A DNA stretch of 64,000 nucleotides. It comes from Methanosarcina sp. Lineage in GTDB: Archaea; Halobacteriota; Methanosarcinia; Methanosarcinales; Methanosarcinaceae. A model generated the notes under the pieces. The model was given only the letters and a program-made list of their open reading frames with translations. It did no database searches and was not told the origin of the DNA. The position numbers and the translations under genes are program-made. Where the stretch lies: NCBI RefSeq assembly GCF_028693135.1, contig NZ_JAQUVZ010000007.1:62001-126000 (forward strand), given 5' to 3'. Shown piece by piece: positions 4,336-18,885 of the stretch (positions within the stretch are counted from its first letter, which is position 1; every line of letters begins with the position of its first letter).

Positions 4336-5595
4336 ATGGCAAAAAAAACTCCATCAATAGACACCAAGAACCTTACAGCAGTCCAGCTCATGGAGCTTGA
4401 CTCCTGCACCCGCTGCGGTGAATGTGTAAAATGGTGTCCAACTTACGCCGCTTCTGGCCAGAAGCCCGGGTTAGCTCCCAGGGACAAGATCCTGCGCTGG
4501 AAGCAGTACATGGACAAGTCCTACGGGCTTAAAGCAAAGCTTTTCGGCCCTAAGGAAATCCCCCAGTCCGAACTTGAAGAATTCAAGGATGATTTACACG
4601 GCTGTAGCACCTGCGGTATCTGTGCAACCGTCTGTGAATCCGGGATCAACACCGTTGAACTCTGGGAAGCTCTGAGGACAAACCTTGTTAAGAAAGGAAT
4701 TGGTCCCTTCGGAAAGCAGAGCATGTTCCCAAAACTTATTGGGCAGTACCACAATCCCTACCTGCTTGACCAGAAAGACAGGCTTGCCTGGGTGCCCCCA
4801 GACGTGAAGATCGCAGACAAGGCAAACATTGTCTACTTCACCGGCTGTACTGCCGGGTACAAGCAGCTCGCTCTGGCTTTTGCAACTTCCCGTGTGCTGA
4901 ACAAGCTGGGCATCGAGTTCACAATGCTCGGGGAAGAGGAATGGTGCTGCGGCTCCGCCCTTATCAGGACCGGACAGGTTCATGTCGATGATGTGGCCCG
5001 GAATCTTGCAAAGCACAATGTGGAAGCCATTAAGGCAAAGGGTGCCACAAAGGTTCTCTACGCCTGTGCAGGCTGCTTCCGTGCCTCCAAGGTTGACTGG
5101 CCGAGGCTTCTCGGAGAAGAGCTGCCCTTTGAGGTAGTCCACATCACCGAGTTCCTTGAAGACCTGATCAAGAAAGACAAGATTAAATGGGAAAAGACCA
5201 TCGACAAGACCGTTACATACCACGACCCCTGCCACCTTGGCCGCCACGTAGGAGTCTACGATGCTCCCAGGTTTGTGCTTGAACACATCCCGGGTGTTAA
5301 GTTTGTAGAAATGGACAGGGTCAGGGAATTCCAGCGCTGCTGTGGAGCCGGTGGTGGTGTGAAGGCCGGTCTTCCGGATCTCGCCCTCGGCGTTGCCGAA
5401 TCCCGTGTCAAGGATGCCCTCGATACCAATGCAGATATCCTCTCAAGTGCATGTCCTTTCTGTAAGAGGAACCTCATGGACGGCCGTGACTCCCTCAAAG
5501 CCGACATCGAGGTTGAGGATATAATTGTACTGGTTGCACAGGCACTCGGTCTTAGTGTAGAAGAACCCAAAAAGGCAGAACCCAAAAAGGCTTGA
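4336..5595 (+). CDS. hdrD: Heterodisulfide reductase subunit D (catalytic iron-sulfur subunit)
   Basis: A 419-residue catalytic subunit that reduces CoM-S-S-CoB at the inner membrane face with electrons from HdrE. The N-terminus carries two ferredoxin-type [4Fe-4S] motifs: [12 protein letters not shown] (residues 24-34) and [11 protein letters not shown] (about 90-100). Two CCG domains follow, with their CCG cores in EEWCCGSA (about 203) and QRCCGAGGG (about 335), each flanked by an upstream Cys and a downstream CxxC (CAGC, CPFC). These bind the non-cubane clusters at the active site. The C-terminus ends in a short Lys/Glu/Pro-rich repeat. It is co-transcribed with hdrE (2-bp gap, GGAGG RBS). 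Confidence 0.97.
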
Positions 5596-5674: not shown

Positions 5675-5696
5675 CGATACCTACCTCCCCTTGAAT

Positions 5697-6332
5697 ATGC
5701 AGATCCCTTACGAATTTCTAGGAAGAGTATTCATATCCCTGATGCTTCTTGCTCTTGTAGGTACCGGGCTTGCCCTGCTTATAGGGGCTTATTCGTTTAA
5801 AAAGCACAGGATTATTTTTCCGGGGTTCGTATTATTCATGCTCTATCTTTTCTATTCTCCCTCCAAGTGGATATGTAAGGTCTTTCGAATCCGGGAAACC
5901 CTTGTTGACGATATTCTTATCGATGTCCGGAATGCTATGATGCTGGATGATTTCGTACATACGAAGGAGAAGCGCATCGTTCTTCTGCCGCAGTGTATGC
6001 GCCATCCTAATTGTAAGGCAAGATGTGACCCCGTTCACGGGTATGAATGCAAGCGCTGCGGGCTCTGTGATATTTCAACGATTTGTGAGGCCGGCGACAA
6101 GTACGGGTTTCAGATATTCGTGATTCCGGGGGGCAGTTTTGTCAAAAAGATCTTCAAGGAATACGGGCCCCGGGCCTGCCTAGGTGTTGCCTGCTACAAT
6201 GAGCTTGCAGAAGATATGCAGGAAGTATCTTTTGTTCCTGTGCAGGGGGTTCTTCTCCTTCGTGATGGCTGCTTCAATACCGAAGCTAACGTTGAAGAAA
6301 TTATTAGAAAAATGGAGATGTGCAATGTATAA
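5697..6332 (+). CDS. DUF116 family membrane-anchored protein, copy 1
   Basis: A DUF116 protein of about 211 residues. It starts with one or two hydrophobic helices (about 5-60), then a soluble part with the family signature: LPQCMRHPNCKARC, a cysteine-rich CKRCGLCDISTIC cluster, an IPGGSFVKKI segment and a late GVACYNEL/LRDGCFNT region. The conserved cysteines suggest a metal or Fe-S site, but the family's reaction is not established. The ATG at 5697 is preferred over TTG at 5691 because a TATA box sits about 27 bases upstream. It overlaps the next gene, also DUF116, by 8 bp. Position directly after hdrED and before a prenyl reductase makes a role near the membrane redox chain or lipid/quinone metabolism conceivable. 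Confidence 0.8.
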   Translation: MQIPYEFLGRVFISLMLLALVGTGLALLIGAYSFKKHRIIFPGFVLFMLYLFYSPSKWICKVFRIRETLVDDILIDVRNAMMLDDFVHTKEKRIVLLPQCMRHPNCKARCDPVHGYECKRCGLCDISTICEAGDKYGFQIFVIPGGSFVKKIFKEYGPRACLGVACYNELAEDMQEVSFVPVQGVLLLRDGCFNTEANVEEIIRKMEMCNV

Positions 6333-6945
6333 TCTTATAGGAAAAGTCCTGTTCTTTACAGTAATCTTTTCGGTTTTTATCGCGTCGACTGCTCTTCTGG
6401 TAAGTCGGATAAGCCTGAACAGATATGTCTGGCTGGCCGGCTTTTTTGCAAATGTGCTTGACTTTTTCTATATGCCACTCAGGCATCTCTTTGTTAAGTT
6501 TTCGGATTCCAGAATATTGGACAAATGGATGGCTTCCCTAAAAAACATGGCTCATAAATCAGCTTTTGTAAAAACCAGGAAACGGATCATTCTTGCTCCC
6601 CACTGCATGCGGGCCCTTGACTGTCCTGCCCATTCCACGAGGGAAGGCATCCAGTGCAAGTCCTGTGGAAAATGTGTGTTTGCTCAGCTAAAAAAAGATT
6701 CGGAAAAATACGGGTACAAGCTTTTTATCCTGACCGGGTCTTCTTTTGTCAAGCGCATCCTGCAGATGGAAAAAGCTGATGGAGTGCTCCTTATCGCCTG
6801 TGATTACGAGCTCAATAAGGTTATGCGTGCCATCAAAAGTAAAAAAATCGTGACCTACGGTGTTCCGATGGAAAGGGACGGTTGCTTCGGAACTGAAGTG
6901 GATTATCAAAAGGTTCTGGATGCTTTCGAAACTTTCAAATACTGA
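6325..6945 (+). CDS. DUF116 family membrane-anchored protein, copy 2
   Basis: A 206-residue paralogue of the preceding protein. It has an N-terminal hydrophobic stretch (about 5-50), then LAPHCMRALDCPAH, CKSCGKC, ILTGSSFVKRI, LIACDYELNK and ERDGCFGTEVD, matching copy 1 block by block. The ATG at 6325 lies inside the last codons of copy 1 (8-bp overlap), with GGAG just upstream, so the pair is translationally coupled. A longer frame opens at 6184 but would run through copy 1 and is rejected as a start. The duplicated pair may act as a heterodimer; function unknown. Confidence 0.8.
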   Translation: MYNLIGKVLFFTVIFSVFIASTALLVSRISLNRYVWLAGFFANVLDFFYMPLRHLFVKFSDSRILDKWMASLKNMAHKSAFVKTRKRIILAPHCMRALDCPAHSTREGIQCKSCGKCVFAQLKKDSEKYGYKLFILTGSSFVKRILQMEKADGVLLIACDYELNKVMRAIKSKKIVTYGVPMERDGCFGTEVDYQKVLDAFETFKY

Positions 6946-7073: not shown

Positions 7074-8198
7074 ATGTATGACTTAATCATCGTAGGTGGT
7101 GGCCCTTCCGGAGCCTCGGCCGGAAGAAGGGCGGGAAAGCTCGGTTTGAATACTCTGCTGCTTGAAAAAGAAGAATTTCCCAGATACAAGCCCTGCGGAG
7201 GAGGGCTTTCGGACCATGCTCTCTCTTATCTTGATTTTGAACTTCCCGAGGAGTTTATTGAGTGGGAAGTCACAGGTGCAAAAGTCTTTTTCAAAAGCCA
7301 GTTGATTGAGGCACATAAAGATTACCGTTTGTCAGTGATTGTCTCCCGGTATATGTTTGATAATCTCCTGCTTGAAAAGGCAAAGGAAACCGAAATTGAA
7401 GTTCATACAGGGGAAAAGGCTCTTTGTTGCAGGGAAATGCCCGAATGTGTCGAAGTCGAGACTAATAGGGGCACATACAGAGCAAAATTTGCAATCGTTG
7501 CCGAGGGGGCACAGGGGCTCGTCAAAACCTGTGTGAGGCCTGCGGATACTAAAGAGGAGTACGGGATCTGCATGGTCACTGAAGTTCCTGCCGATGAAAA
7601 AGAAATTGAAGAACGACTGGGAAAAACCATCGAACTGCATTTCGGGATTGCAGGCGGGGGGTACGGCTGGATTTTTCCTCACAGGACTTATTATTCAGTT
7701 GGAATCGGAGGGGTTGTTAAAGACCTTCCCCACCCAAAAGAAACAATGCTTGAGTTCCTGAAAGACAACGGTTTTACAGGCGAATACAAACTGCATGGGC
7801 ATAAGATCCCGTGGGGGGGGTTTAAGCGCAGAGTTGCAGGTTCAAGGGTCCTCTTGAGCGGGGATGCCGCAGGTTTTGTTGACTCCTTTTCTGGAGAAGG
7901 GCTGGCCTATGCCATCAGTTCCGGGCAATTTGCTGCAGAAGTAATTGCCGGAATTTGCATGTGCGGTGGAAAAATCAAAGACCTGAATAAATACGAGTCT
8001 CTCTGCCAGGCTGAGTTTGGGACTCACCTTAAGTATTCCCTTCTGTTTTCAAAGGTGATGCACCGTTTCCCGGACAGGACGTTTAAGATTTTCACTTCAA
8101 GTGAAAAAATGATTGATAAATATCTTGAAGTTGTGGATTTCAAGATCAATTATAAAGATTACCTGCGCTGGGCATTTTTGAATTTCAAGCTAAGGTAA
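7074..8198 (+). CDS. Geranylgeranyl reductase family flavoprotein
   Basis: A 374-residue FAD-dependent prenyl reductase. The N-terminus has the Rossmann motif VGGGPSGASAGR (residues 7-18). KPCGGGLSDHAL follows near residue 45, a substrate/flavin segment of geranylgeranyl reductases, and LLSGDAAGFVDSFSGEG (about 260-276) is the second FAD-binding motif. The family saturates isoprenoid double bonds in archaeal lipids, quinones and chlorophyll side chains. The frame is open from 7029, but the ATG at 7074 puts the flavin motif at its usual distance from the N-terminus. It follows hdrED and the DUF116 pair on the same strand. Methanophenazine carries a partly saturated C25 chain, so it is a candidate substrate (inference); archaeol precursors are the alternative. 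Confidence 0.85.
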   Translation: MYDLIIVGGGPSGASAGRRAGKLGLNTLLLEKEEFPRYKPCGGGLSDHALSYLDFELPEEFIEWEVTGAKVFFKSQLIEAHKDYRLSVIVSRYMFDNLLLEKAKETEIEVHTGEKALCCREMPECVEVETNRGTYRAKFAIVAEGAQGLVKTCVRPADTKEEYGICMVTEVPADEKEIEERLGKTIELHFGIAGGGYGWIFPHRTYYSVGIGGVVKDLPHPKETMLEFLKDNGFTGEYKLHGHKIPWGGFKRRVAGSRVLLSGDAAGFVDSFSGEGLAYAISSGQFAAEVIAGICMCGGKIKDLNKYESLCQAEFGTHLKYSLLFSKVMHRFPDRTFKIFTSSEKMIDKYLEVVDFKINYKDYLRWAFLNFKLR

Positions 8199-9047: not shown

Positions 9048-10187
9048 ATGAGTGATTATCTATTTGATTTGCATATTGGATATGTCCGTTTTAGAAATCC
9101 CATTGCATTGGCGCCGATGGCAGGAATTGTCGACAGCGCTTTTGCCAACCAGTATGCATGTGATGCCGGACTGGTAGTGCTTGGAGCCTTCAATCTTGAT
9201 GAAGGATCTATTGCAGTTGCATCAAAGCTCGTAGCCAGGGGTAGAAAAGAGTTCATTTCCGATGAACCTATGGAGCTTATAAAAACGGAAATCCGGGCAG
9301 TAAACTCGGGCAGTGCTGTTGCCGTAAACGTAAGAAGCACCACCCTTGAGCCGTTAATTGAAGCTGCAAAAATTGTAAAGGAAGAAGGGGCAATCCTTGA
9401 GTTAAACGCTCACTGCAAGCAGCCTGAAATGCTTGAAGCAGGCATAGGAGTAGCCCTTCTGCACGACCTCCCCAGGCTTTCTGCCTGGATAAAGGCAATT
9501 AAGGAAACAGGAGTCGTGCTTTCTGTAAAGGTACGGGCAAATGTAGTGAATGATGTCGAACTTGCCAGGCTTATTGATAAGGCTGGGGCGGATATCATCC
9601 ATGTAGATGCCATGCTGGAAGGTTTTGGAGCCGACCTTGATGCGATCATAAGTTACAGGGATGCTACAAGGCTCTTCCTTATAGGCAACAACTCGGTTAC
9701 TGACTTTGCCACGGCAAAGGAGATGTTTTCCCGAGGAGCTGACATGGTTTCTGTTGCAAGGGGAGCTATGGAAAACCCCACACTGATAAATGAACTTGTA
9801 GAGAGTGTCAGTTCGTATCAGGAGTCTATAGGCTGGTATAATGCTCCCAAACACGTTTGCAGTGAAGGGGATTTCAGGGGTTTGGCTTTCTGCTGCCTCC
9901 CGGTAAAAGCCTGTCCCGTGCACGGGAAATCCCGAAAACTGGGATACACTGCCGAAGAGTTCGCCCGGACAAAAATGGATTTTGCCAAAGGCACAATGCT
10001 GGAATTCGGGGAGGATACCTGTTTCGGCAGCCTTGTCTGGTGCTGTAAAATTACAAAACCTTGCTGGATCAGGGACGGTGTCCTGAACACACTTGACCTC
10101 TCTGATGCAGAGTATATGAAGCTTAAGGAGCAGCTGGCAAAATACATTCTTGACCATGCCAGGATTCCGGTAAATGAATCTCAATAA
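9048..10187 (+). CDS. Methanogenesis marker protein 9
   Basis: A 379-residue protein with a dihydroorotate-dehydrogenase/Dus-like TIM barrel (about 1-260): NPIALAPMAGIVDSAFA at the N-terminus, VNVRSTTLEP, LELNAHCKQPEM, LSVKVRANVV, DIIHVDAML and LIGNNSVTD following barrel strand order. A C-terminal part carries clustered cysteines (FCCLPVKACPVHG, CFGSLVWCCKITKPCW) that look like a metal or Fe-S site. It belongs to the set of proteins found almost only in methanogens, hence marker 9; the reaction is not known. AGAGGT eight bases before the ATG is the RBS. It overlaps the next gene by 14 bp, implying an operon with the CitG-like and DUF447 genes. Confidence 0.9.
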   Translation: MSDYLFDLHIGYVRFRNPIALAPMAGIVDSAFANQYACDAGLVVLGAFNLDEGSIAVASKLVARGRKEFISDEPMELIKTEIRAVNSGSAVAVNVRSTTLEPLIEAAKIVKEEGAILELNAHCKQPEMLEAGIGVALLHDLPRLSAWIKAIKETGVVLSVKVRANVVNDVELARLIDKAGADIIHVDAMLEGFGADLDAIISYRDATRLFLIGNNSVTDFATAKEMFSRGADMVSVARGAMENPTLINELVESVSSYQESIGWYNAPKHVCSEGDFRGLAFCCLPVKACPVHGKSRKLGYTAEEFARTKMDFAKGTMLEFGEDTCFGSLVWCCKITKPCWIRDGVLNTLDLSDAEYMKLKEQLAKYILDHARIPVNESQ

Positions 10188-11229
10188 CCCTGCTTTCTCC
10201 TGTCATATTCCCGAATGGGCAGAGGAATCCCGAACCTCGAGTCTTATTGCACGCTGTGCACAGCTTGCCATGCTGCTCGAGGTCTCAGCCTCTCCAAAGC
10301 CGGGGAACGTTGATAGGGAACATAATTATCCTGATACCTGTTTTGAGCATTTTATAGCTTCTTCAGTTGCCGTCTATCCTGTCCTGGAGCTTGCTGCAAG
10401 GAGCAGAGACGGGATAGGAACACTTCTCAGGAGTGCGGTTTACGAAAGTTCTGCCTGGCAGCAGGGAGGAAATACCCACTTTGGCGCTTTTTTACTCCTG
10501 ATTCCTCTGGCAATGGCTGCAGGCGAAATCTCCAGGGAACAGGGAGAACAAACTTGCTGTGGAAAAGCAGGTTTCCGGCTTGATGCCGGGGAATTTGAGA
10601 GTCTTGCTGCCCGAGCCCATGCTTTTGTCCGCGTAACTAACTGCGAAGACGCGGTTGAGTTCTACAGGGCTTTCGGGCACGCGGGAGTCAGGGTAAATAG
10701 CGTGGAAGAATTTGATCTTGAAGACCCTGAAGCAACTGCTGATCTCAGGACACAGAATATTACCCTTTACGGCCTTATGGACATTGCCAGAGGGTATGAC
10801 CTGATCGCAAATGAGTGGACCTCTGGGTTCGGGCGTTGCCTTGAGGGAGCAAAAAGCATTCTTGAGTTTATGCAGGCACGAAACTGTAAAGCAGAAGCTT
10901 TCACCGGGGGCTCGGTTTCCAGCTGTTCGGGCACAGGAATCAACGAGGCTATAGTTTATACTTTCCTTAAACTGCTTTCCAGGCACAGAGATACCTTCAT
11001 CCAGACCAAGTTCGATATTGAAACTGCAGATTATGTTTCTTTCAGAGCAGGCGAGATCCTCTCAAGCTGGGAAACTTCAGGGAAAACAGCAAGGGACTTT
11101 GCATCCATCCTTCCTGCAGTACAGGATTTTGACTCCGAGCTTCTGGATAAAAGGATCAATCCGGGTTCTACGGCAGATATCATTATTGCAGGGCTTTTTA
11201 TTTCTCTTCTTGGAGGCTTACGCTTTTGA
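10174..11229 (+). CDS. Triphosphoribosyl-dephospho-CoA synthase-like protein (CitG/MdcB family)
   Basis: A 351-residue homologue of CitG/MdcB. The signature SASPKPGNVDREHNY near residue 43 fits the nucleotide-binding motif of the family; QGGNTHFGAFLLLIPLA and a C-terminal NPGSTADIIIAGLFISLL are also family-like. CitG makes the 2'-(5''-triphosphoribosyl)-3'-dephospho-CoA precursor of citrate and malonate decarboxylase prosthetic groups. Methanogens lack those enzymes, so a different ribosyl transfer is more likely. It starts inside the end of the marker 9 gene and its stop overlaps the DUF447 start (TTGA). The neighbours suggest methanopterin or a related cofactor (inference). Confidence 0.8.
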   Translation: MNLNNPAFSCHIPEWAEESRTSSLIARCAQLAMLLEVSASPKPGNVDREHNYPDTCFEHFIASSVAVYPVLELAARSRDGIGTLLRSAVYESSAWQQGGNTHFGAFLLLIPLAMAAGEISREQGEQTCCGKAGFRLDAGEFESLAARAHAFVRVTNCEDAVEFYRAFGHAGVRVNSVEEFDLEDPEATADLRTQNITLYGLMDIARGYDLIANEWTSGFGRCLEGAKSILEFMQARNCKAEAFTGGSVSSCSGTGINEAIVYTFLKLLSRHRDTFIQTKFDIETADYVSFRAGEILSSWETSGKTARDFASILPAVQDFDSELLDKRINPGSTADIIIAGLFISLLGGLRF

Positions 11230-11864
11230 CCGGGCTTTCTTCTGATTGCAGGGAATCTGAAAAATTCTCTCCGGAAATCTCCCTCTCTTCTTTAGGGATC
11301 CGGGAGGGAATCTCTGAAGTAATAGTGACCACAGGCTTTGAGAGCCCGAACGCTGCTCCTATAGGTATCATTACAAAGGGTGGGAAGCCTTTTGTCCGGC
11401 TCTTCAAAGGCAGCCATACCTGGGCAAATGTCTTTAAAGAAAGGTATCTTGCTTCAAATGTAGTTTATGACCCTCTCCTTTTTGTGCGTTCCACCTTTTT
11501 CGACCTTGAACCCTCCGAGTTTGAATATGTAACGGCTGGCGGGCTTAAGTTTCCGATCCTAAAAGAAGCCGCTGCCTGGATCGTTTTCGAATGCGTTAAT
11601 GTTAAGAATACAGAGCAGGCTCTTGTTGCCGATCTTGTTCCTGTGGATGCGGGCTTTAATGAAGAAAACCTGAAAGACCTTCCCGTACCTAACAGGGGAT
11701 TCAATGCTGTGCTTGAGGCTACAGTCCATGCAACCCGCTATCAGCTTTCGGGGGATGAAAAATATCTTGAATGGATCCGACACTATGAAGCCCTTGCTTT
11801 CAAATGCGGGGGAGATGGTGAAAAGAAAGCTATGAAACTGCTTTATGAAGTGCTGGGGATTTGA
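11226..11864 (+). CDS. DUF447 family flavin-binding protein
   Basis: A 212-residue DUF447 protein, related in fold to FMN-binding split barrels: EVIVTTGFESPNAAPIGIITK near the N-terminus and LVPVDAGFNEENLKDLPVPNRGFNAVLEATVHATRY in the middle. Relatives are found in methanogens and in methylotrophic bacteria that use tetrahydromethanopterin. The start is TTG at 11226, overlapping the previous stop by four bases, with GGAGG seven to eight bases upstream; no ATG sits near the expected N-terminus. Translational coupling to the CitG-like gene is strong. A role in methanopterin-linked C1 metabolism is inferred from that distribution. Confidence 0.8.
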   Translation: MTGLSSDCRESEKFSPEISLSSLGIREGISEVIVTTGFESPNAAPIGIITKGGKPFVRLFKGSHTWANVFKERYLASNVVYDPLLFVRSTFFDLEPSEFEYVTAGGLKFPILKEAAAWIVFECVNVKNTEQALVADLVPVDAGFNEENLKDLPVPNRGFNAVLEATVHATRYQLSGDEKYLEWIRHYEALAFKCGGDGEKKAMKLLYEVLGI

Positions 11865-12032
11865 GTTTCTTTCTAACTCCAGATTCTTTTCTGAATTTCT
11901 TTCTAACTCCAAATACTTTTCTGATTCATTCAAATTCCCTATCCTTTTCTGATTCTTTCTGGTTTCATTTCCCTATCTAAGTTACTCTTTTTTTAGAAAA
12001 TTATATTATCCTCTACGGCATGACTTCTGTCC

Positions 12033-12752
12033 ATGAATTTTCAGAGAATTGCATGGGGAATTACCGGAGCCGGACATTTTCTGGATCGCAGTTACCAGGT
12101 CTTTAAGGAACTCAAAATCAGAGACCACGGGCTTTCCGTAAACACGTATATTTCCAGGGCAGCTGAAGAGGTGCTCCGGATGTACGGGCTTGAGCAGAAG
12201 CTTGTGAAAATCTCGGGAGGAGACTACCTTGAAGAAATCTTCCGGGAAAGTGAGCAGGGTTCAAGTTCTCCCAAAGTCGGGCGCTTTCTCCTTGACAGGT
12301 ACGATGCCCTCTTCGTTACGCCTGCAACCTCAAACACAGTTTCGAAAATCGCTTATGGAATTGCCGATTCCCTTGTAACCAATGCCGTTGCCCAGGCTGT
12401 TAAGGGAAGGGTCCCGGTCTATATCGTGCCCGTAGACATTGAAGGTTCGATAGTGTCGGAAATGCCCTACAACATTGACAGGAAACAGTGCCAGCACTGC
12501 GAGGACTGCCCCCCGAGGGATAACTGCCCCCACGAAGCAATAACTGTGAAAAATGGTGTTACAGACCAGATAGACCTCCTGAAATGCAAAGGCTGCGGGA
12601 TTTGCAAGGAATTGTGCCCGTATAATGCCATCAAAGGCGGGCCTGTTGAAGTCCTGGTCAGGGATGTGGACATGCGCAATGTTGAGATTGTAAAAGAGCT
12701 ACAGGGAATCACTGTACTTGAAAGCCCGGAAGCCATTCTGGATCTGTTCTAA
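12033..12752 (+). CDS. dmrX: Dihydromethanopterin reductase, iron-sulfur flavoprotein (DmrX)
   Basis: A 239-residue protein with an N-terminal flavoprotein (HFCD) domain, residues about 1-150: WGITGAGHFLDRS and ATSNTVSKIAYGIADSLVTNAVAQA. Two [4Fe-4S] ferredoxin-type motifs follow, CQHCEDCPPRDNCPHEAI and CKGCGICKELCPYNAI. The domain order and size match the M. mazei enzyme characterised as archaeal dihydromethanopterin reductase, the last step of tetrahydromethanopterin/tetrahydrosarcinapterin synthesis. AAATTATATTA about 30 bases upstream of the ATG and the absence of an RBS suggest a leaderless mRNA. A hairpin follows at 12816. The other candidate in the family is a generic archaeoflavoprotein electron carrier. 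Confidence 0.85.
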   Translation: MNFQRIAWGITGAGHFLDRSYQVFKELKIRDHGLSVNTYISRAAEEVLRMYGLEQKLVKISGGDYLEEIFRESEQGSSSPKVGRFLLDRYDALFVTPATSNTVSKIAYGIADSLVTNAVAQAVKGRVPVYIVPVDIEGSIVSEMPYNIDRKQCQHCEDCPPRDNCPHEAITVKNGVTDQIDLLKCKGCGICKELCPYNAIKGGPVEVLVRDVDMRNVEIVKELQGITVLESPEAILDLF

Positions 12753-13198: not shown

Positions 13199-13900
13199 TC
13201 ACACTTCAATCAAGTCCATCTGCCCGTTTTCAAGCTCCCCGCAGCTATCGGACATAAAACGGATCACAGCCTCATCATGGGAGATAAGGAGGTAACTTAT
13301 TCCCTGCTCAGCCTGCACATTTTTCAGCAGGTGGAGGATCTGGGCCTGGACCGAAACATCAAGAGCAGAGGTCGGTTCGTCAAGGACAATGTATTCTGGG
13401 TCTAGCAGGAGAATCCGGCCCAGGGCAAGGCGCTGTAACTGGCCGCCTGAGAGCTGGGAAGGGTAGCGTAAAAGAACTTCTTCCGGGAGGCCTGTGGTCT
13501 TTAGTATTTCTTTTGTACATCGGATACGCTCGGTTCCGGAGATCTCGAGCAGGTTCAGGACTTCAAAAATCGAATGCTTGATCCGCTTTCTGGGGTTAAA
13601 GGCATCTGTCGGGTCCTGGAACATCATCTGGACCTTTCGGCGGAAAGTTGTATATTCGGCTTTTTTCATCCTGGAAAGTGGATTCCCGTTAAAAAAGACT
13701 GCACCATCTGTGGGACTCTCAAGTCCTGAAATTATTCTTCCAAGTGTGCTTTTCCCTTCTCCTGAGGGGCCCATCAGCCCGAAGGTTTTCCCGGGTTCAA
13801 GTTCAAAAGATACGTCCCGGAAAATGCATTTTCCCCTTCCCAGCAGGCCGGACCCGTACTTCCTGGAGAGGTTTTCGGCTTTCAGAGACACAAAAAACAC
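13199..13900 (-). CDS. Opp/Dpp/Nik-type ABC transporter ATP-binding protein (second ATPase)
   Basis: A 233-residue ATPase of the OppF/DppF/NikE type. Walker A is GPSGEGKST, the Q-loop MMFQDP, the signature LSGGQLQR, Walker B YIVLDEPTSALD and the H-loop ISHD. It powers uptake with its partner ATPase. The frame opens at GTG 13900, but GTG 13891 has GGTG at better spacing; the first form overlaps the upstream ATPase gene by 19 bp. It is the last gene of the minus-strand importer operon. The C-terminus is short, without the OppF C-terminal substrate-family extension. Confidence 0.9.
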   Translation of the reverse strand: MFFVSLKAENLSRKYGSGLLGRGKCIFRDVSFELEPGKTFGLMGPSGEGKSTLGRIISGLESPTDGAVFFNGNPLSRMKKAEYTTFRRKVQMMFQDPTDAFNPRKRIKHSIFEVLNLLEISGTERIRCTKEILKTTGLPEEVLLRYPSQLSGGQLQRLALGRILLLDPEYIVLDEPTSALDVSVQAQILHLLKNVQAEQGISYLLISHDEAVIRFMSDSCGELENGQMDLIEV

Positions 13901-14940
13901 CTCACAGCCCTTCCATTGCTTTCTTTGAGTTCGGGATGTTCCTGCATGCAGAGTTTTTCCTTAAAAGGGCATCTCGGATGGAACCTGCAGCCTTCAGGCG
14001 GGCTGCTGAGAGGTGGGGATGAACCGGGTATGGGCACAAACCCCCTTTCAGGCAGGCTGTTCAGGAGTCCCTGGGTGTAGGGGTGTAGTGGTCTTTCAAA
14101 AAGGCTTGAAGGGTCAGCAATCTCAACGATTTCTCCGGCATACATTACGGCAACCCTATCTGCAAGCCGCCGCACAAATCCGAGGTCGTGACTTATGAGA
14201 AGAATGGCAGTTTCACTTTTTTCTTTCAGTCGTTTCAGTTCTATTTCCAGTTCGGCTACGCGGTTCCTGTCGAGCCCTTTGCTGGGTTCGTCTGCTATAA
14301 TAAGGACTGGGTCAAGCATTGTTGAAGCCGCAATCAAAAAGCGCTGGTTCATCCCTCCGGAACACCAGGAGGGGTAGTATCCCATATATTCATGGGGATT
14401 TGAAAAACCCATACGTTTAAGGACTCTTGCGACGTTTGAGAAATTGTTCTTCCTCATCTTCAACCCTTTCTCATTTTTCTCCTCCTTTTCTCTCCATACC
14501 TTTTCCTTTCTCTCCTCTTTTTCCTTCCATTCCTTCCCTTTTCTTTTTTCCTGTCCGTGAATTCGGAGGGGTTCTGCAAGCTGGTGCCCTATGGAATATA
14601 CAGGATTTAAAGCAAGAGAAGGGTTCTGGAAAATTATAGATATTTCTTTTCCCCTGAGCTTTGTCATCTCTTTTTCGCTCAGTTCGAGGAGGTTTTTGCC
14701 TCCGAATTCTATTGTTCCTTTAACTCTGGATTCCGGGGGAAGCAGACGCATAATCGCATGTGCAACGACGGATTTCCCACAACCCGTTTCCCCTACGAGG
14801 GCCAGGGTTTCTTTTTCCCTAATCGAAAATGAAACGTAGAAAACAGCTGTCCCGCTTTCTTTTTCGTTTTCATTTCCTTTTTCGTTTTCATTTCCCTGGA
14901 AAGAAACGTTGAGGTCTTTTACTTCCAGCAGGGCATTCAT
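13882..14940 (-). CDS. Opp/Dpp/Nik-type ABC transporter ATP-binding protein (first ATPase) with charged insertion
   Basis: A 352-residue OppD/DppD-type ATPase: Walker A GETGCGKS, Q-loop IIFQNP, Walker B LIIADEPSKGLD, H-loop ISHD and the C-terminal oligopeptide-family tail with CRFHPRCPFKEKLC. Two oddities stand out. A Gly-Asn-Glu-Lys repeat sits after the first strand (about residues 17-32). A run of about 35 Lys/Glu/Arg/Trp residues lies between the Q-loop and the signature (about 145-180). The signature reads WCSGGMNQR where LSGGMxQR is usual. The ATG at 14940 is chosen because family homology starts there; the open frame to 15270 is read-through of the permease gene. The start overlaps the permease stop (ATGA). 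Confidence 0.9.
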   Translation of the reverse strand: MNALLEVKDLNVSFQGNENEKGNENEKESGTAVFYVSFSIREKETLALVGETGCGKSVVAHAIMRLLPPESRVKGTIEFGGKNLLELSEKEMTKLRGKEISIIFQNPSLALNPVYSIGHQLAEPLRIHGQEKRKGKEWKEKEERKEKVWREKEEKNEKGLKMRKNNFSNVARVLKRMGFSNPHEYMGYYPSWCSGGMNQRFLIAASTMLDPVLIIADEPSKGLDRNRVAELEIELKRLKEKSETAILLISHDLGFVRRLADRVAVMYAGEIVEIADPSSLFERPLHPYTQGLLNSLPERGFVPIPGSSPPLSSPPEGCRFHPRCPFKEKLCMQEHPELKESNGRAVRCFLCL

Positions 14941-15854
14941 TCCGAATCCACTCCCCTTTTTCCGTTTTCTTTTTCTCTTCCTTCGAACCCGAACCCCATC
15001 AGTGCGATGAACATTACACAGAGTGTGATGCATATTCCCGGGGGCAGGTACCACCACCACATGTCTCTTATAAAGCCTCCTCGAGAAAAGGCAAAGGAAA
15101 GCATGATTCCCCAACTTTTCATGCTTATGTCCCCCAGTCCCAGGAAAGAGAGTGAAGCTTCTGAAATCATTGCTGAAGCCGTTGCCAGCATGAACTTGGG
15201 CAGCAGGACGTGGATGAGGTTCGGGAAGATGTCCGAGACCATGATATGAAATGAGGAAAAACCCATGCATCGGGCACTTTTGACATAGCCTGTTTCCCTT
15301 ATCTGCAGGGTTTTTGAGCGGACAACTCTGGCAATGGACTCCCAGGAAAGAAGCCCAAGAACAAGGATCAGGATCCAGATGCTCGGGTGCAGGAAAGCTC
15401 CCAGGATTATGATCAGGGGGATTTTCGGGATTATGAGGACAACGTCGGTAAAGCCCATAAGCAACTCGTCCGGCGTCCCCCTGAAGTAGCCTGAAAAGAG
15501 TCCTATCATGAGGCCTATTAAGGTTGAGATGGAGGCTGAGGCAAAGCCTACCATCAGCGAGATTCTGGCCCCGTAAACCAGTTCCGAGAGTATGTCATTT
15601 CCTATATCATTTGTCCCTAGAAGGTGAGCAGTTGATGGGGCTTCATAAGGAATGAAACGCTCGGTTGGAGAGTAAGGGGCAAAAAGGGACGGAAACAGGG
15701 CAAGGATAAGGAAAAATGTAAAGAGAAAAAGTCCTCCTCGGTTTAATTTTTTCAGGTTTCTTTTGTATTTCCGGATATCAAGGTTTAAATTATGGGCTAG
15801 AAAATCTTTCCATTTCCTGGGGCGTTCCCTTATGTACGCTTCCTCTTGCATCAT
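14937..15854 (-). CDS. Opp/Dpp/Nik-type ABC transporter permease (C type)
   Basis: A 305-residue inner-membrane permease of the DppC/NikC type with about six transmembrane helices. It has the N-terminal OppC motif (SPTERFIPYEAPSTAHLLGT), a TDVVLIIPKIPLIIILGA helix, and the ATPase-coupling EAA loop (ARVVRSKTLQIRETGYVKSARCMG). It ends in a short Glu/Lys/Asn-rich tail. Overlaps of four bases with both neighbours (ATGA) show tight operon packing. Confidence 0.92.
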   Translation of the reverse strand: MMQEEAYIRERPRKWKDFLAHNLNLDIRKYKRNLKKLNRGGLFLFTFFLILALFPSLFAPYSPTERFIPYEAPSTAHLLGTNDIGNDILSELVYGARISLMVGFASASISTLIGLMIGLFSGYFRGTPDELLMGFTDVVLIIPKIPLIIILGAFLHPSIWILILVLGLLSWESIARVVRSKTLQIRETGYVKSARCMGFSSFHIMVSDIFPNLIHVLLPKFMLATASAMISEASLSFLGLGDISMKSWGIMLSFAFSRGGFIRDMWWWYLPPGICITLCVMFIALMGFGFEGREKENGKRGVDSE

Positions 15855-16798
15855 GCCGGCCTCCTGACTCTCGGGTCGGCAACTGCATACAGCAGGTCTG
15901 CAAGCATGTTTGCAAGCAGGACTGCAAGGGCTATTACCAGAAACGACCCCTGGAGGACAGGGTAATCCTTTCCAATTATTGCATCATAGATGAGGGTTCC
16001 CATGCCGTTTAAGGAAAAAACGATCTCTGTAAAAAGGGCTCCGCTAAAGAGAAATCCTACATCAAGGGCCAGTAGGGTAATGATCGGAAGAGAAGCATTC
16101 TTCATTACGTGCCTGAAAAGAATGGCTGTATCGTAAAGGCCCTTTGCTCGGGCATAGAGGGCATAAAGTTGCCCTTTTTCCTGTATGACGCTTCCTCGCA
16201 TTATCAGGAAGTTCCTGGAAGCGGAAAAGAGGGTCATCACAGTTACCGGTAAAAACATGTGGTACATAATATTTTCCGGGGTCGGGATGTCATAAAAGCC
16301 TTTAAAAGGAAAAAGCCCGAGCTTGAAGGCAAAGATTTCCAGGAAAAGAAGGGCAAGGAAATAGGGAGGTGTGCAGGAGAGCGCAATAAACCCGTAGCAT
16401 ACGAGGCGGTTTGCCTTTGTTTCAGGTTTCCAGCCTGAGTATGCCCCGAGCAGGGTTCCAAGGACTGTCCCCAGGAGTACGGAAACCCCCACAAAAAGGA
16501 TGGTCCAGCCAATCCTCTCCCTCAAAACCTCGGCAACGGGGCTGTGAAGGTGATATGAGTAACCCAGGTCAAACCGGAGGAGATCTCCGATGTAAGCTGT
16601 AAACTGGTTGTAAAGCGGCATGTTCAGCCCCATCTCGGCCCTCAACTCCTCCATTACGGTCTCCGAAACGTAGACATCCTCCCCTATGAGATTCTTTACG
16701 GGGTCCCCTGGCATAAGCCTCGGAAACGCAAAGTTGAGGGTAACTATGAGGAAAAAGGAGGCCGCGTACCTGAGTGTTTTTTTAATCACTTCACTCAT
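15851..16798 (-). CDS. Opp/Dpp/Nik-type ABC transporter permease (B type)
   Basis: A 315-residue DppB/NikB-type permease. The N-terminal helix ends in the typical PRLMPGDPVKNLIGED; FDLGYSYHLHSPVAEVLRERIGWT and an EAA loop (LYALYARAKGLYDTAILFRHVMKNASLPIIT) follow, ending LYAVADPRVR. It pairs with the C-type permease to form the channel. The substrate-binding-protein gene lies upstream on the same strand, separated by about 300 bp that contain a transposon-end relic. Confidence 0.92.
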   Translation of the reverse strand: MSEVIKKTLRYAASFFLIVTLNFAFPRLMPGDPVKNLIGEDVYVSETVMEELRAEMGLNMPLYNQFTAYIGDLLRFDLGYSYHLHSPVAEVLRERIGWTILFVGVSVLLGTVLGTLLGAYSGWKPETKANRLVCYGFIALSCTPPYFLALLFLEIFAFKLGLFPFKGFYDIPTPENIMYHMFLPVTVMTLFSASRNFLIMRGSVIQEKGQLYALYARAKGLYDTAILFRHVMKNASLPIITLLALDVGFLFSGALFTEIVFSLNGMGTLIYDAIIGKDYPVLQGSFLVIALAVLLANMLADLLYAVADPRVRRPA

Positions 16799-16857
16799 TG
16801 TATCACCTTGCCGTTTTCAAATCTTTTTGTCGTTTTCAACCGCCTGAGCAGTATTCA

Positions 16858-16921
16858 CCTTCCTCGACAGGTTGGATTTATCCGATCTGGCAGGTGGGGG
16901 AGGAATGTGTAACCTCTCTCG
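16858..16921 (+). mobile_element. Transposon-end relic inside the ABC importer operon
   Basis: CTTCCTCGACAGG...GGCAGGTGGGGGAGGAATGTGTAACCTCTCTCG aligns with 1319-1383 over most of its length. It lies in the 300-bp gap between the permease and substrate-binding-protein genes, a gap not expected in an otherwise overlapping operon. No transposase frame is present. Confidence 0.45.
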
Positions 16922-17100
16922 ATTTTCGTTATCATTAAACATTAAAATCAGTATTCGCTTCTGCATTCGGAGTTTCAATTCCTGAAGCTTCTTCATTTTC
17001 CGAAGGCAACATTGCTAGGGGAATCTCCCGAAAAATAGTAAAGAGAGGGCCACAACGCAGAACAGCTTGCTTTTTGTCCTCTCCATACATCGCCTTCTCC

Positions 17101-18885
17101 TTAAGCAGATTTTTTCTTTACATTTACAAAGGTATCCAGGTTGTAAATTCCGTAAAGGGGATCAGTGTACCAGCCTTCGAAGTGCCTGTTATACGGAGTA
17201 ACCACGTTGCTCCAGTAGAGGGGAATTGCAGGCAGGTTCTCTGCATAGTAGTCCTGAAGCTCGTATGCATAATCCTGAAGTTCTGCAGGGTCTGTGGTTG
17301 CGAGGATATTGTCGCAGAGCTGAAGGAATTCGGGATCATCCAGGTTATGCATAACCCCCTGTCCTGTTCTCCTTGAATCAAAATAGCCGCTTCCCCAGCT
17401 TGCGTGCATGAGCATGCCCCAGGGGGTGGAACGGGTTACTGTCAGGTCATATTCATAACTGTCCTTAAGGGTAAACCAGGTATCTGAATCTACAGTCCTC
17501 AAGTCTGCGGCAAGGCCCACCTGTTCCAGATATTCTTTGAGAAGCTCGCCTGTGCGGGCGTACTCCGGCCGGATAAGGATTTCAAGCTTGAAATCTTTCC
17601 CGTCTTTTCCTTCCAGGACTCCGTTCCCATTGCTGTCCGAATATCCTGCTTTTTCCAGGAGTTCTCTGGCTTTTTCGGGGTTGTACTCAAGTTTTTCAGT
17701 TTCCTTGAATGCTTCCATTGAAGGCGGCACAAAACCGCGGTTTGGGACTTCCCCGTACCCCTGGGTCTCGAGTCTGGCAATTTCTTCATAATTTATAGTA
17801 TAGGCCAGAGTTTCCCTGAATTCCGGATCCGAAAAAGGAGCTCTCTTCAAGTTCGGGGCAAGGAAGATAAGCCCGATGTCTGTTTTTTCAAGAAAGTCGA
17901 AATCTCCGGTTTTTTCAAGCTGCTCAATGCTGGAATAAGGGTATGACCCGGCATATTTATAATAAGTGTCAACATCCCCGTTTTTAAGGGCCAGAGTGGC
18001 AACGTCCACGTTTGAATAAAAATGGACCTCCACAGTTTCAGATTCCGGAGCCTTTCCTTTCCAGTAAGGGTTTATCTCAAAAACGAGTTTTCCGGCATTA
18101 AAGTCTATCTGCTTGAGGTAATAGGGTCCGCAGCCCACGTATGGGCCTTCGTTTAAGTATTCCATGGGGTTATCGATTGATTTCCATACATGGGCAGGAA
18201 GGATATTGTAGGTCGCAAACTCCAGGTCAATGCGGGTGTAAGGCTTGTTAAATCTGAAGGTTACGGAATTGTTTGCATCCGAAACAGCCGAACTTTCCAG
18301 TGTATCGTTTATCCATCTGGCCGAGGGCGTTTCTTTCCCATAGTAGCGGATCGAAAACTCAATATCTTCGGGGGTTACCGGCTCTCCGTCGCTCCAGTAG
18401 AGGTCGTCTTTCAGGTAGAAGGTCCAGCATGTATTATTTTCCGATACCTCATAGCTTTCAGCAAGCTGGCCTGCAAGGTGCCCCTCAGAGTCTATTTTCA
18501 TGAGGGGTGGGTTTGAGAGATGGGCAAAAACTCCAAGACTTGAATCCCCGAGAAATGATGCAGATTTTATTACGCTTGGGGTTGCGATTTTCAGGGCCAC
18601 TCCTTCGGTATCTGTTGACTGCTCCATATCTGAGGCTGATTCTTCGGATCTGGTTCTCGAGTCTTGCAGTTTTTCTTCTTCTCCAAGCAGGACTTTTATA
18701 TATGTAATAACCCGGTCAAAAATCCCCTCTTTCGAGGGCGTAAGATTTTCTCCGGAAGCCTCATGTTCTGCCGCTCCTGCGGGATACATGTTTGCGCAAA
18801 AAATAAAAATGAGTACTGCAAAGGTCAGCCACCGTTTCAACCCTCTGTTAAATCCTGATTCCGTGAAATGTTTCCCCTGTTTCAT
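17101..18885 (-). CDS. ABC transporter substrate-binding protein, family 5
   Basis: A 594-residue extracellular binding protein (SBP_bac_5, Opp/Dpp/Nik family). It has a signal peptide (about 10-38, ending in AGAAEHE). A Ser/Glu-rich linker with a short helix (about 45-95) precedes the binding domain. Family blocks include LSNPPLMKIDSEGHLAGQLAE, TWTFYLKDDLYWSDGEPVT-like text (here CWTFYLKDD) and AYTINYEEIARLETQGYGEV. No clear lipobox is seen, so anchoring is uncertain. The RBS AGGAGG lies nine bases before the ATG. The ligand (peptide, nickel chelate or other) cannot be read from the sequence; the neighbours contain no nickel or peptidase gene to decide it. Confidence 0.9.
   Translation of the reverse strand: MKQGKHFTESGFNRGLKRWLTFAVLIFIFCANMYPAGAAEHEASGENLTPSKEGIFDRVITYIKVLLGEEEKLQDSRTRSEESASDMEQSTDTEGVALKIATPSVIKSASFLGDSSLGVFAHLSNPPLMKIDSEGHLAGQLAESYEVSENNTCWTFYLKDDLYWSDGEPVTPEDIEFSIRYYGKETPSARWINDTLESSAVSDANNSVTFRFNKPYTRIDLEFATYNILPAHVWKSIDNPMEYLNEGPYVGCGPYYLKQIDFNAGKLVFEINPYWKGKAPESETVEVHFYSNVDVATLALKNGDVDTYYKYAGSYPYSSIEQLEKTGDFDFLEKTDIGLIFLAPNLKRAPFSDPEFRETLAYTINYEEIARLETQGYGEVPNRGFVPPSMEAFKETEKLEYNPEKARELLEKAGYSDSNGNGVLEGKDGKDFKLEILIRPEYARTGELLKEYLEQVGLAADLRTVDSDTWFTLKDSYEYDLTVTRSTPWGMLMHASWGSGYFDSRRTGQGVMHNLDDPEFLQLCDNILATTDPAELQDYAYELQDYYAENLPAIPLYWSNVVTPYNRHFEGWYTDPLYGIYNLDTFVNVKKKSA

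What the first reader, a model, noticed from the sequence alone, without database searches (positions are those of the whole stretch)
9048..12752. Marker 9 + CitG-like + DUF447 + DmrX: candidate missing steps of methanopterin metabolism
Three genes overlap head to tail, with DmrX (dihydromethanopterin reductase) just after. From memory, DUF447 and CitG-like genes also accompany tetrahydromethanopterin genes in methylotrophic bacteria. A CitG-like enzyme attaching a phosphoribosyl unit fits the ribosyl chemistry of the pterin side chain, in an organism lacking citrate/malonate decarboxylase.
Basis: partly seen in the sequence, partly recalled or inferred. Interest (0 to 1): 0.6.

Follow-up and report, generated by a model that had tools for sequence, protein, structure and literature searches.

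The report
Likely missing methanopterin side-chain enzymes
Two neighbouring genes of unknown function in a methane-producing archaeon, a CitG-like transferase and an FMN protein (DUF447), occur almost exactly in organisms with genes for methanopterin-type cofactors, in archaea and bacteria alike, and are good candidates for two enzymes still missing from that cofactor's pathway.

Summary
In detail: Marker 9 (9048-10187), a CitG-family gene (10174-11229) and DUF447 (11226-11864) overlap head to tail; DmrX (12033-12752) follows. In 150 Burkholderiaceae genomes the 27 with Mch are exactly the 27 with DUF447, and each has an extra CitG-type gene about 1 kb from mch. All 79 bacterial loci of this CitG type lie among mch/mptG/mtdB-type genes, none near citrate lyase genes. 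In archaea CitG is followed directly by DUF447 in 107 of 120 genomes. Both follow the RFAP synthase mptG rather than methanofuran genes; three haloarchaea lack mptG, CitG and DUF447 together but keep Mch. H4MPT-type CitGs form a clade apart from CitG/MdcB (support 100/100). The DUF447 orthologue was crystallised with FMN. Best reading (inferred): DUF447 reduces the aryl-riboside to ribitol, and the CitG-like enzyme adds the alpha-ribosyl unit, probably from ATP. Marker 9 is only weakly tied to this: 68 of 128 archaea lack it, and most of those keep the pair. The bacterial gene association has been published since about 2005; the step assignments, the clade and the haloarchaeal pattern are what this adds. 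No reaction is shown.

The parts
9048..10187 (+). Marker 9 protein: Dus-like (MJ0144-type) domain, residues about 1-256, plus methanogenesis marker 9 domain, residues 262-369. Neighbour of the pair; not part of the core claim.
   Evidence: PF01207 1.3e-15; TIGR03277 177 bits, cut-off 96.2
10174..11229 (+). CitG-like protein of the H4MPT clade; proposed alpha-ribosyl transferase of the methanopterin side chain
   Evidence: PF01874 2.7e-72; clade with bacterial mch-linked CitG-like genes, 100/100
11226..11864 (+). DUF447 protein, FMN-binding split-barrel type; proposed reductase of the aryl-riboside
   Evidence: PF04289 3e-32, PF20766 7.9e-20; PDB 2nr4 (FMN-bound MM1853) 1e-106 by sequence, best fold match
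12033..12752 (+). DmrX, dihydromethanopterin reductase (known last step)
   Evidence: TIGR02700 406 bits, cut-off 251; PF02441 and Fer4

Best explanation
The CitG-like protein and the DUF447 protein are biosynthetic enzymes of the methanopterin side chain. With MptG (RFAP synthase) they would form a three-step module: (1) MptG makes the aryl C-riboside from pABA and PRPP (known); (2) DUF447, as an FMN-dependent reductase, opens the p-aminophenyl ribofuranoside and reduces it to the 1-deoxy-ribitol, the para-amino group helping to expel the ring oxygen so that a hydride can add at C1 (inferred); (3) the CitG-like enzyme attaches a 5-phosphorylated alpha-ribosyl unit to the 5-OH of the ribitol, probably with ATP as donor and release of adenine as in CitG/MdcB; inversion at the beta N-glycosidic bond of ATP would give the alpha linkage that methanopterin has (inferred, from knowledge of the CitG reaction and the structure of methanopterin). 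DmrX makes the final reduction (known). Shown: membership of the H4MPT gene set, the separate clade, the kept core residues, FMN in the crystallised orthologue. Inferred: which step each one catalyses, and their order relative to joining the pterin. My estimates: both act in H4MPT synthesis 0.93; CitG-like is the ribosyl transferase 0.65 (ATP as donor 0.5); DUF447 is the ring-opening reductase 0.45. The confidence below is for the statement as a whole.
For: Burkholderiaceae: DUF447 in exactly the 27 of 150 genomes that have Mch, each with an extra CitG copy near mch. 79 of 79 bacterial loci of this CitG type lie in H4MPT clusters, no cit genes nearby, and DUF447 is in all of those genomes (33 in the flank; 46 of 46 others). 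Archaea: CitG directly followed by DUF447 in 107 of 120; mptG, CitG and DUF447 missing together in three haloarchaea that keep Mch. Present with mptG in Haloferax volcanii and Sulfolobus acidocaldarius, which lack MfnB. Tree splits the H4MPT clade from CitG/MdcB, 100/100; core residues K42, P43, G44, N100, T101, G104, D273, G331, D335 shared with CitG/MdcB. DUF447 orthologue 2nr4 and relatives 2iml, 2ptf solved with FMN. About seven proteins of methanopterin synthesis were unknown in 2011 (PMC3087415).
Against: No biochemistry or genetics was done here. Haloarchaea have the trio but are reported to use folate (PMC8305020), so the trio's product there is unknown. From memory, White's extract work used PRPP as ribosyl donor, not ATP. 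The Dus-like FMN protein next door could be the reductase instead. Co-occurrence cannot tell which step each protein performs, and counts are not corrected for kinship.
Confidence: 0.45

Rival explanations
1. The two proteins act in H4MPT synthesis but at other steps: for example DUF447 reduces the pterin or another intermediate, the Dus-like (Marker 9) protein does the ring reduction, and the CitG-like enzyme uses PRPP or a different acceptor.
For: Genomic evidence fixes the pathway, not the step. A Dus-like FMN-family gene also stands next to CitG in methanogens and in most of the haloarchaea looked at.
Against: The Dus-like gene was not seen in the bacterial cluster read, while DUF447 is in all bacterial genomes tested; the pterin is common to folate-type synthesis while the trio follows mptG.
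Confidence: 0.45
2. The two proteins act in methanofuran/methylofuran synthesis, whose genes share the bacterial cluster.
For: MfnE/MfnF-type and RimK-type (MyfB-like) genes lie in the same bacterial clusters; another gene once assigned to H4MPT, orf17, proved to belong to methylofuran (PMC8141765).
Against: H. volcanii, S. acidocaldarius and the sampled haloarchaea lack MfnB but have CitG, DUF447 and mptG.
Confidence: 0.04
3. The CitG-like gene is an ordinary triphosphoribosyl-dephospho-CoA synthase that makes the prosthetic group of an acyl carrier protein.
For: Same Pfam family.
Against: 44 bits against curated cut-offs of 272 (TIGR03125) and 29 against 282 (TIGR03132); clade apart, 100/100; no citrate lyase genes near any of 79 bacterial relatives; H4MPT-positive Burkholderiaceae keep a separate distant CitG-family copy.
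Confidence: 0.02

Closest known systems
CitG / MdcB, triphosphoribosyl-dephospho-CoA synthases (PF01874)
   Same: Same Pfam family over the full length; core residues K-P-G-x-V, N-T-x-x-G, D273 and P-G-x-x-A-D kept; proposed chemistry, ribosyl transfer from ATP, is analogous
   Different: Far below the CitG and MdcB equivalog cut-offs; separate clade; N45 for L and N329 for S, canonical H50 column missing; H4MPT gene neighbourhood instead of cit/mdc
CitG-like H4MPT-linked gene of methylotrophic bacteria (orf7 by synteny mch-orf5-orf7, PMC3615186)
   Same: Sister group in the tree; H4MPT neighbourhood
   Different: 24-28% identity to the window protein; in bacteria DUF447 stands further down the cluster or elsewhere
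DUF447 proteins of known structure: MM1853 (2nr4), AF protein 2iml, MTH_863 (2ptf), Rhodopirellula 3b5m
   Same: 2nr4 is the orthologue from Methanosarcina mazei (78% identical in the fold alignment); FMN bound in 2nr4, 2iml, 2ptf
   Different: None in fold; no function has been assigned to those structures in their titles
DmrX / AfpA / DmrB dihydromethanopterin reductases
   Same: Window protein 4 passes TIGR02700
   Different: Known enzyme (PMC6193120), not a missing step
Methanogenesis marker 9 proteins (TIGR03277)
   Same: Over cut-off
   Different: Narrower spread than CitG and DUF447

Membership tests
CitG/MdcB equivalogs (TIGR03125, TIGR03132) | Score over the curated equivalog cut-off | tested here: not met
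   44 bits vs 272.3; 29.1 vs 282.35
CitG/MdcB equivalogs (TIGR03125, TIGR03132) | Groups with CitG/MdcB in a tree | tested here: not met
   Split from 12 CitG/MdcB sequences with 100/100 support
CitG/MdcB equivalogs (TIGR03125, TIGR03132) | Transfers triphosphoribosyl from ATP to dephospho-CoA | not testable with these tools
   Needs an enzyme assay
PF01874 superfamily | Pfam gathering score and conserved core residues | tested here: met
   244 bits vs 27; shared core residues
DUF447 (PF04289, PF20766) | Both domains over gathering score | tested here: met
   111.4 vs 24 and 71.1 vs 24.8 bits
DUF447 (PF04289, PF20766) | FMN binding | tested here: inconclusive
   Orthologue 2nr4 is FMN-bound and the fold matches; binding by this protein itself not measured
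H4MPT biosynthesis gene | Co-occurrence with H4MPT genes, both ways, in a group where they are patchy | tested here: met
   DUF447: 27 of 27 with Mch, 0 of 123 without; CitG-like: extra copy near mch in the 27
H4MPT biosynthesis gene | Needed for H4MPT in vivo; a defined reaction in vitro | not testable with these tools
   Needs mutants, LC-MS and assays
DmrX (TIGR02700) | Score over cut-off; flavoprotein domain plus ferredoxin-type 4Fe-4S domain | tested here: met
   406.1 vs 251.35 bits; PF02441, PF00037
Methanogenesis marker 9 (TIGR03277) | Score over cut-off | tested here: met
   177.2 vs 96.2 bits

The most novel reading that the evidence does not exclude
MptG, DUF447 and the CitG-like enzyme are the three-step side-chain module of methanopterin-type cofactors, with the CitG-like enzyme using ATP as ribose donor; and haloarchaea, held to use only folate, still make a cofactor or compound with such a side chain, which the haloarchaeal genomes G008, G049 and G104 have lost as a block.
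Probability: 0.25. Interest if true: 0.8.

Novelty: new variant of a known kind. Interest (0 to 1): 0.6.

Why it matters
The pathway of H4MPT, the C1 carrier of methanogenesis and of most methylotrophs, still has unassigned steps (about seven unknown proteins in the 2011 inventory, PMC3087415). Naming a candidate for the ribosyl transfer and one for the ring reduction makes both directly testable, offers targets special to methanogens, would help rebuild the pathway in other hosts, and raises the question of what pterin haloarchaea really make.

Tried and rejected
Ordinary CitG for citrate lyase: rejected. Methanofuran role: disfavoured. Marker 9 as a core H4MPT enzyme: not supported. Literature: no held paper joins CitG or triphosphoribosyl with methanopterin (one search matched only at word starts and missed 'tetrahydromethanopterin', so it was repeated); the two key papers of 2005 are not held, nor the DmrX paper. 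The 'orf7' of PMC7391723 is a different M. extorquens gene (xox cluster) and was not used. A PDB search with E. coli CitG found nothing. A weak Foldseek match of the CitG model to ADP-ribosylserine hydrolase ARH3 (E about 0.5) is not significant. A tblastn of DUF447 against plasmids found only one haloarchaeon, because the bacterial proteins are too far off for that query.
Full report
What is there. The window (G000:C50:62001-126000) is from a methanogen of Methanosarcina type: its top-scoring relatives are same-genus genomes, and the PDB orthologue of its DUF447 is MM1853 of M. mazei. Four plus-strand genes stand at the stated place: Marker 9 (9048-10187), CitG-like (10174-11229), DUF447 (11226-11864) and DmrX (12033-12752). 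The first three overlap by 14 and 4 nt. Pfam and NCBIfam confirm each family. Marker 9 is a Dus-like domain with the marker-9 domain at its C-terminus.

Bacterial test. A tblastn search of plasmids found CitG-like relatives on megaplasmids. The Paraburkholderia phymatum plasmid (L002) holds, in order, mptG, mtdB, an ATP-grasp gene, mch, a RimK-type ligase, CitG-like, an AfpA/DmrX-like flavoprotein, a DUF6513 protein with weak similarity to a pterin-binding family, DUF447 and, on the other strand, an amino-acid-kinase gene of MfnE type. A scan of bacterial genomes kept the best 79 loci: Mch within the flank in 78, RimK-type ligase in 79, MptG and MtdB in 75 each, AfpA/DmrX in 70, citrate lyase genes in none. 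DUF447 lay in the flank of 33, and all 46 other genomes carry it elsewhere. In 150 Burkholderiaceae genomes, a family where H4MPT is patchy, DUF447 and Mch occur in the same 27 genomes and in none of the other 123; Fisher p is 2e-30, not corrected for kinship. CitG-family genes are in 84: the 27 have one copy near mch besides a distant one, and the others have only a distant copy.

Archaeal test. In 128 genomes of the window's phylum mptG was found in 124, CitG in 122, DUF447 in 123; CitG is followed directly by DUF447 in 107 of 120. Three genomes of a haloarchaeal family (G008, G049, G104) lack all three but keep Mch, and G104 shares its genus with three genomes that have all three. Other absences of CitG (G068, G078, G088) or DUF447 (G016, G093) are in genomes of 91-93% completeness and may be assembly gaps; G081 lacks only mptG. 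MfnB (methanofuran) is missing from H. volcanii and S. acidocaldarius, and Mch from the latter, although mptG, CitG and DUF447 ring in both. So the pair follows the pterin side chain, not the furan cofactor. Marker 9 was found in 60 genomes (55 over the cut-off), next to CitG in the regions read. Haloarchaea have the Dus-like gene without the marker domain, often in the order cofD, Dus-like, CitG, DUF447.

The CitG clade. A maximum-likelihood tree of 56 sequences puts 22 archaeal and 22 bacterial mch-linked sequences on one side and 12 CitG/MdcB sequences on the other, with 100/100 support; the Burkholderiaceae H4MPT copies do not group with the MdcB-type copies of the same family. Both sides keep K42, P43, G44, V46, G82, N100, T101, G104, D273, G331, A334 and D335 (window numbering). 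The H4MPT side has N45 where CitG/MdcB has L, N329 where they have S, and lacks the column of their H50. This fits kept donor chemistry and a changed acceptor; that reading is inference. The model (pLDDT 85) matches only 3h9p of Archaeoglobus in the PDB.

DUF447. The model (pLDDT 84.5) matches 2nr4, the FMN-bound orthologue MM1853 of M. mazei, then 2iml and 2ptf, also with FMN, and 3b5m of the planctomycete Rhodopirellula. Residues E31, T36, A44, G47, T65, N68, D82, R157, R171 and A202 are kept in methanogens, haloarchaea and bacteria.

Mechanism. Bacterial dephospho-H4MPT lacks the phosphate and hydroxyglutarate (PMC8141765), so the steps shared by both domains build the aryl-ribitol-ribose part (that the ribose is kept in it is from memory). 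MptG makes the aryl riboside (PMC6787355). An FMN reductase suits the ring opening, and a CitG-type transferase suits the second ribose; inversion on ATP gives an alpha linkage. These assignments rest on fold, family chemistry and elimination and have not been shown. The 2011 inventory counts at least nine steps for the non-pterin part and about seven unknown proteins (PMC3087415); later discoveries in papers not held could have closed some of these.

What is known. The bacterial genes have been called H4MPT-linked since the work cited in PMC3615186 (Chistoserdova 2005, Kalyuzhnaya 2005, not held). Equating the CitG-like gene with orf7 is by synteny (mch-orf5-orf7). No held paper links CitG to methanopterin. 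Haloarchaea are described as lacking methanopterin-specific enzymes, and HVO_2628 as an unlikely RFAP synthase (PMC8305020). The presence of the trio puts that in question: haloarchaeal RFAP-synthase homologues mostly pass the curated cut-off of TIGR00144, yet may have another substrate.

Limits. Counts are not corrected for kinship. The bacterial locus scan kept only the 80 best and leans to Burkholderiales. Planctomycetes and Alphaproteobacteria were hardly sampled. The structural models rest on shallow alignments.

Noticed in passing
L005, L102, L104, L109, L110: Haloarchaea carry cofD (F420 synthesis), a Dus-like gene without the marker-9 domain, CitG and DUF447 in a row.
   Followed up: partly
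G076, G086, G106 (family f22); G046, G125: These archaeal genomes have CitG and DUF447 but only a divergent RFAP-synthase homologue (E about 1e-20, below the TIGR00144 cut-off), which may be their working RFAP synthase.
   Followed up: no
L002 16086-17477: A DUF6513 protein with weak similarity to a pterin-binding family (PF14251, below its cut-off) lies next to DUF447 in the bacterial clusters; similar proteins are in 68 of 79 loci. It could be the bacterial enzyme that joins pterin and aryl-riboside.
   Followed up: no
window 5691-6332 and 6184-6945: Two tandem DUF116 genes.
   Followed up: no
window 4336-5595 and 7074-8198: An HdrD/TfrB-like iron-sulfur protein and a geranylgeranyl-reductase family protein upstream.
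   Followed up: no
window 13199-18885: A minus-strand set that reads like a peptide-type ABC transporter (two ATPases, two permeases, a binding protein), seen in the ORF list only.
   Followed up: no
window 11865-12032: The gap between DUF447 and dmrX holds short repeats of the type TTTCTAACTCCA.
   Followed up: no
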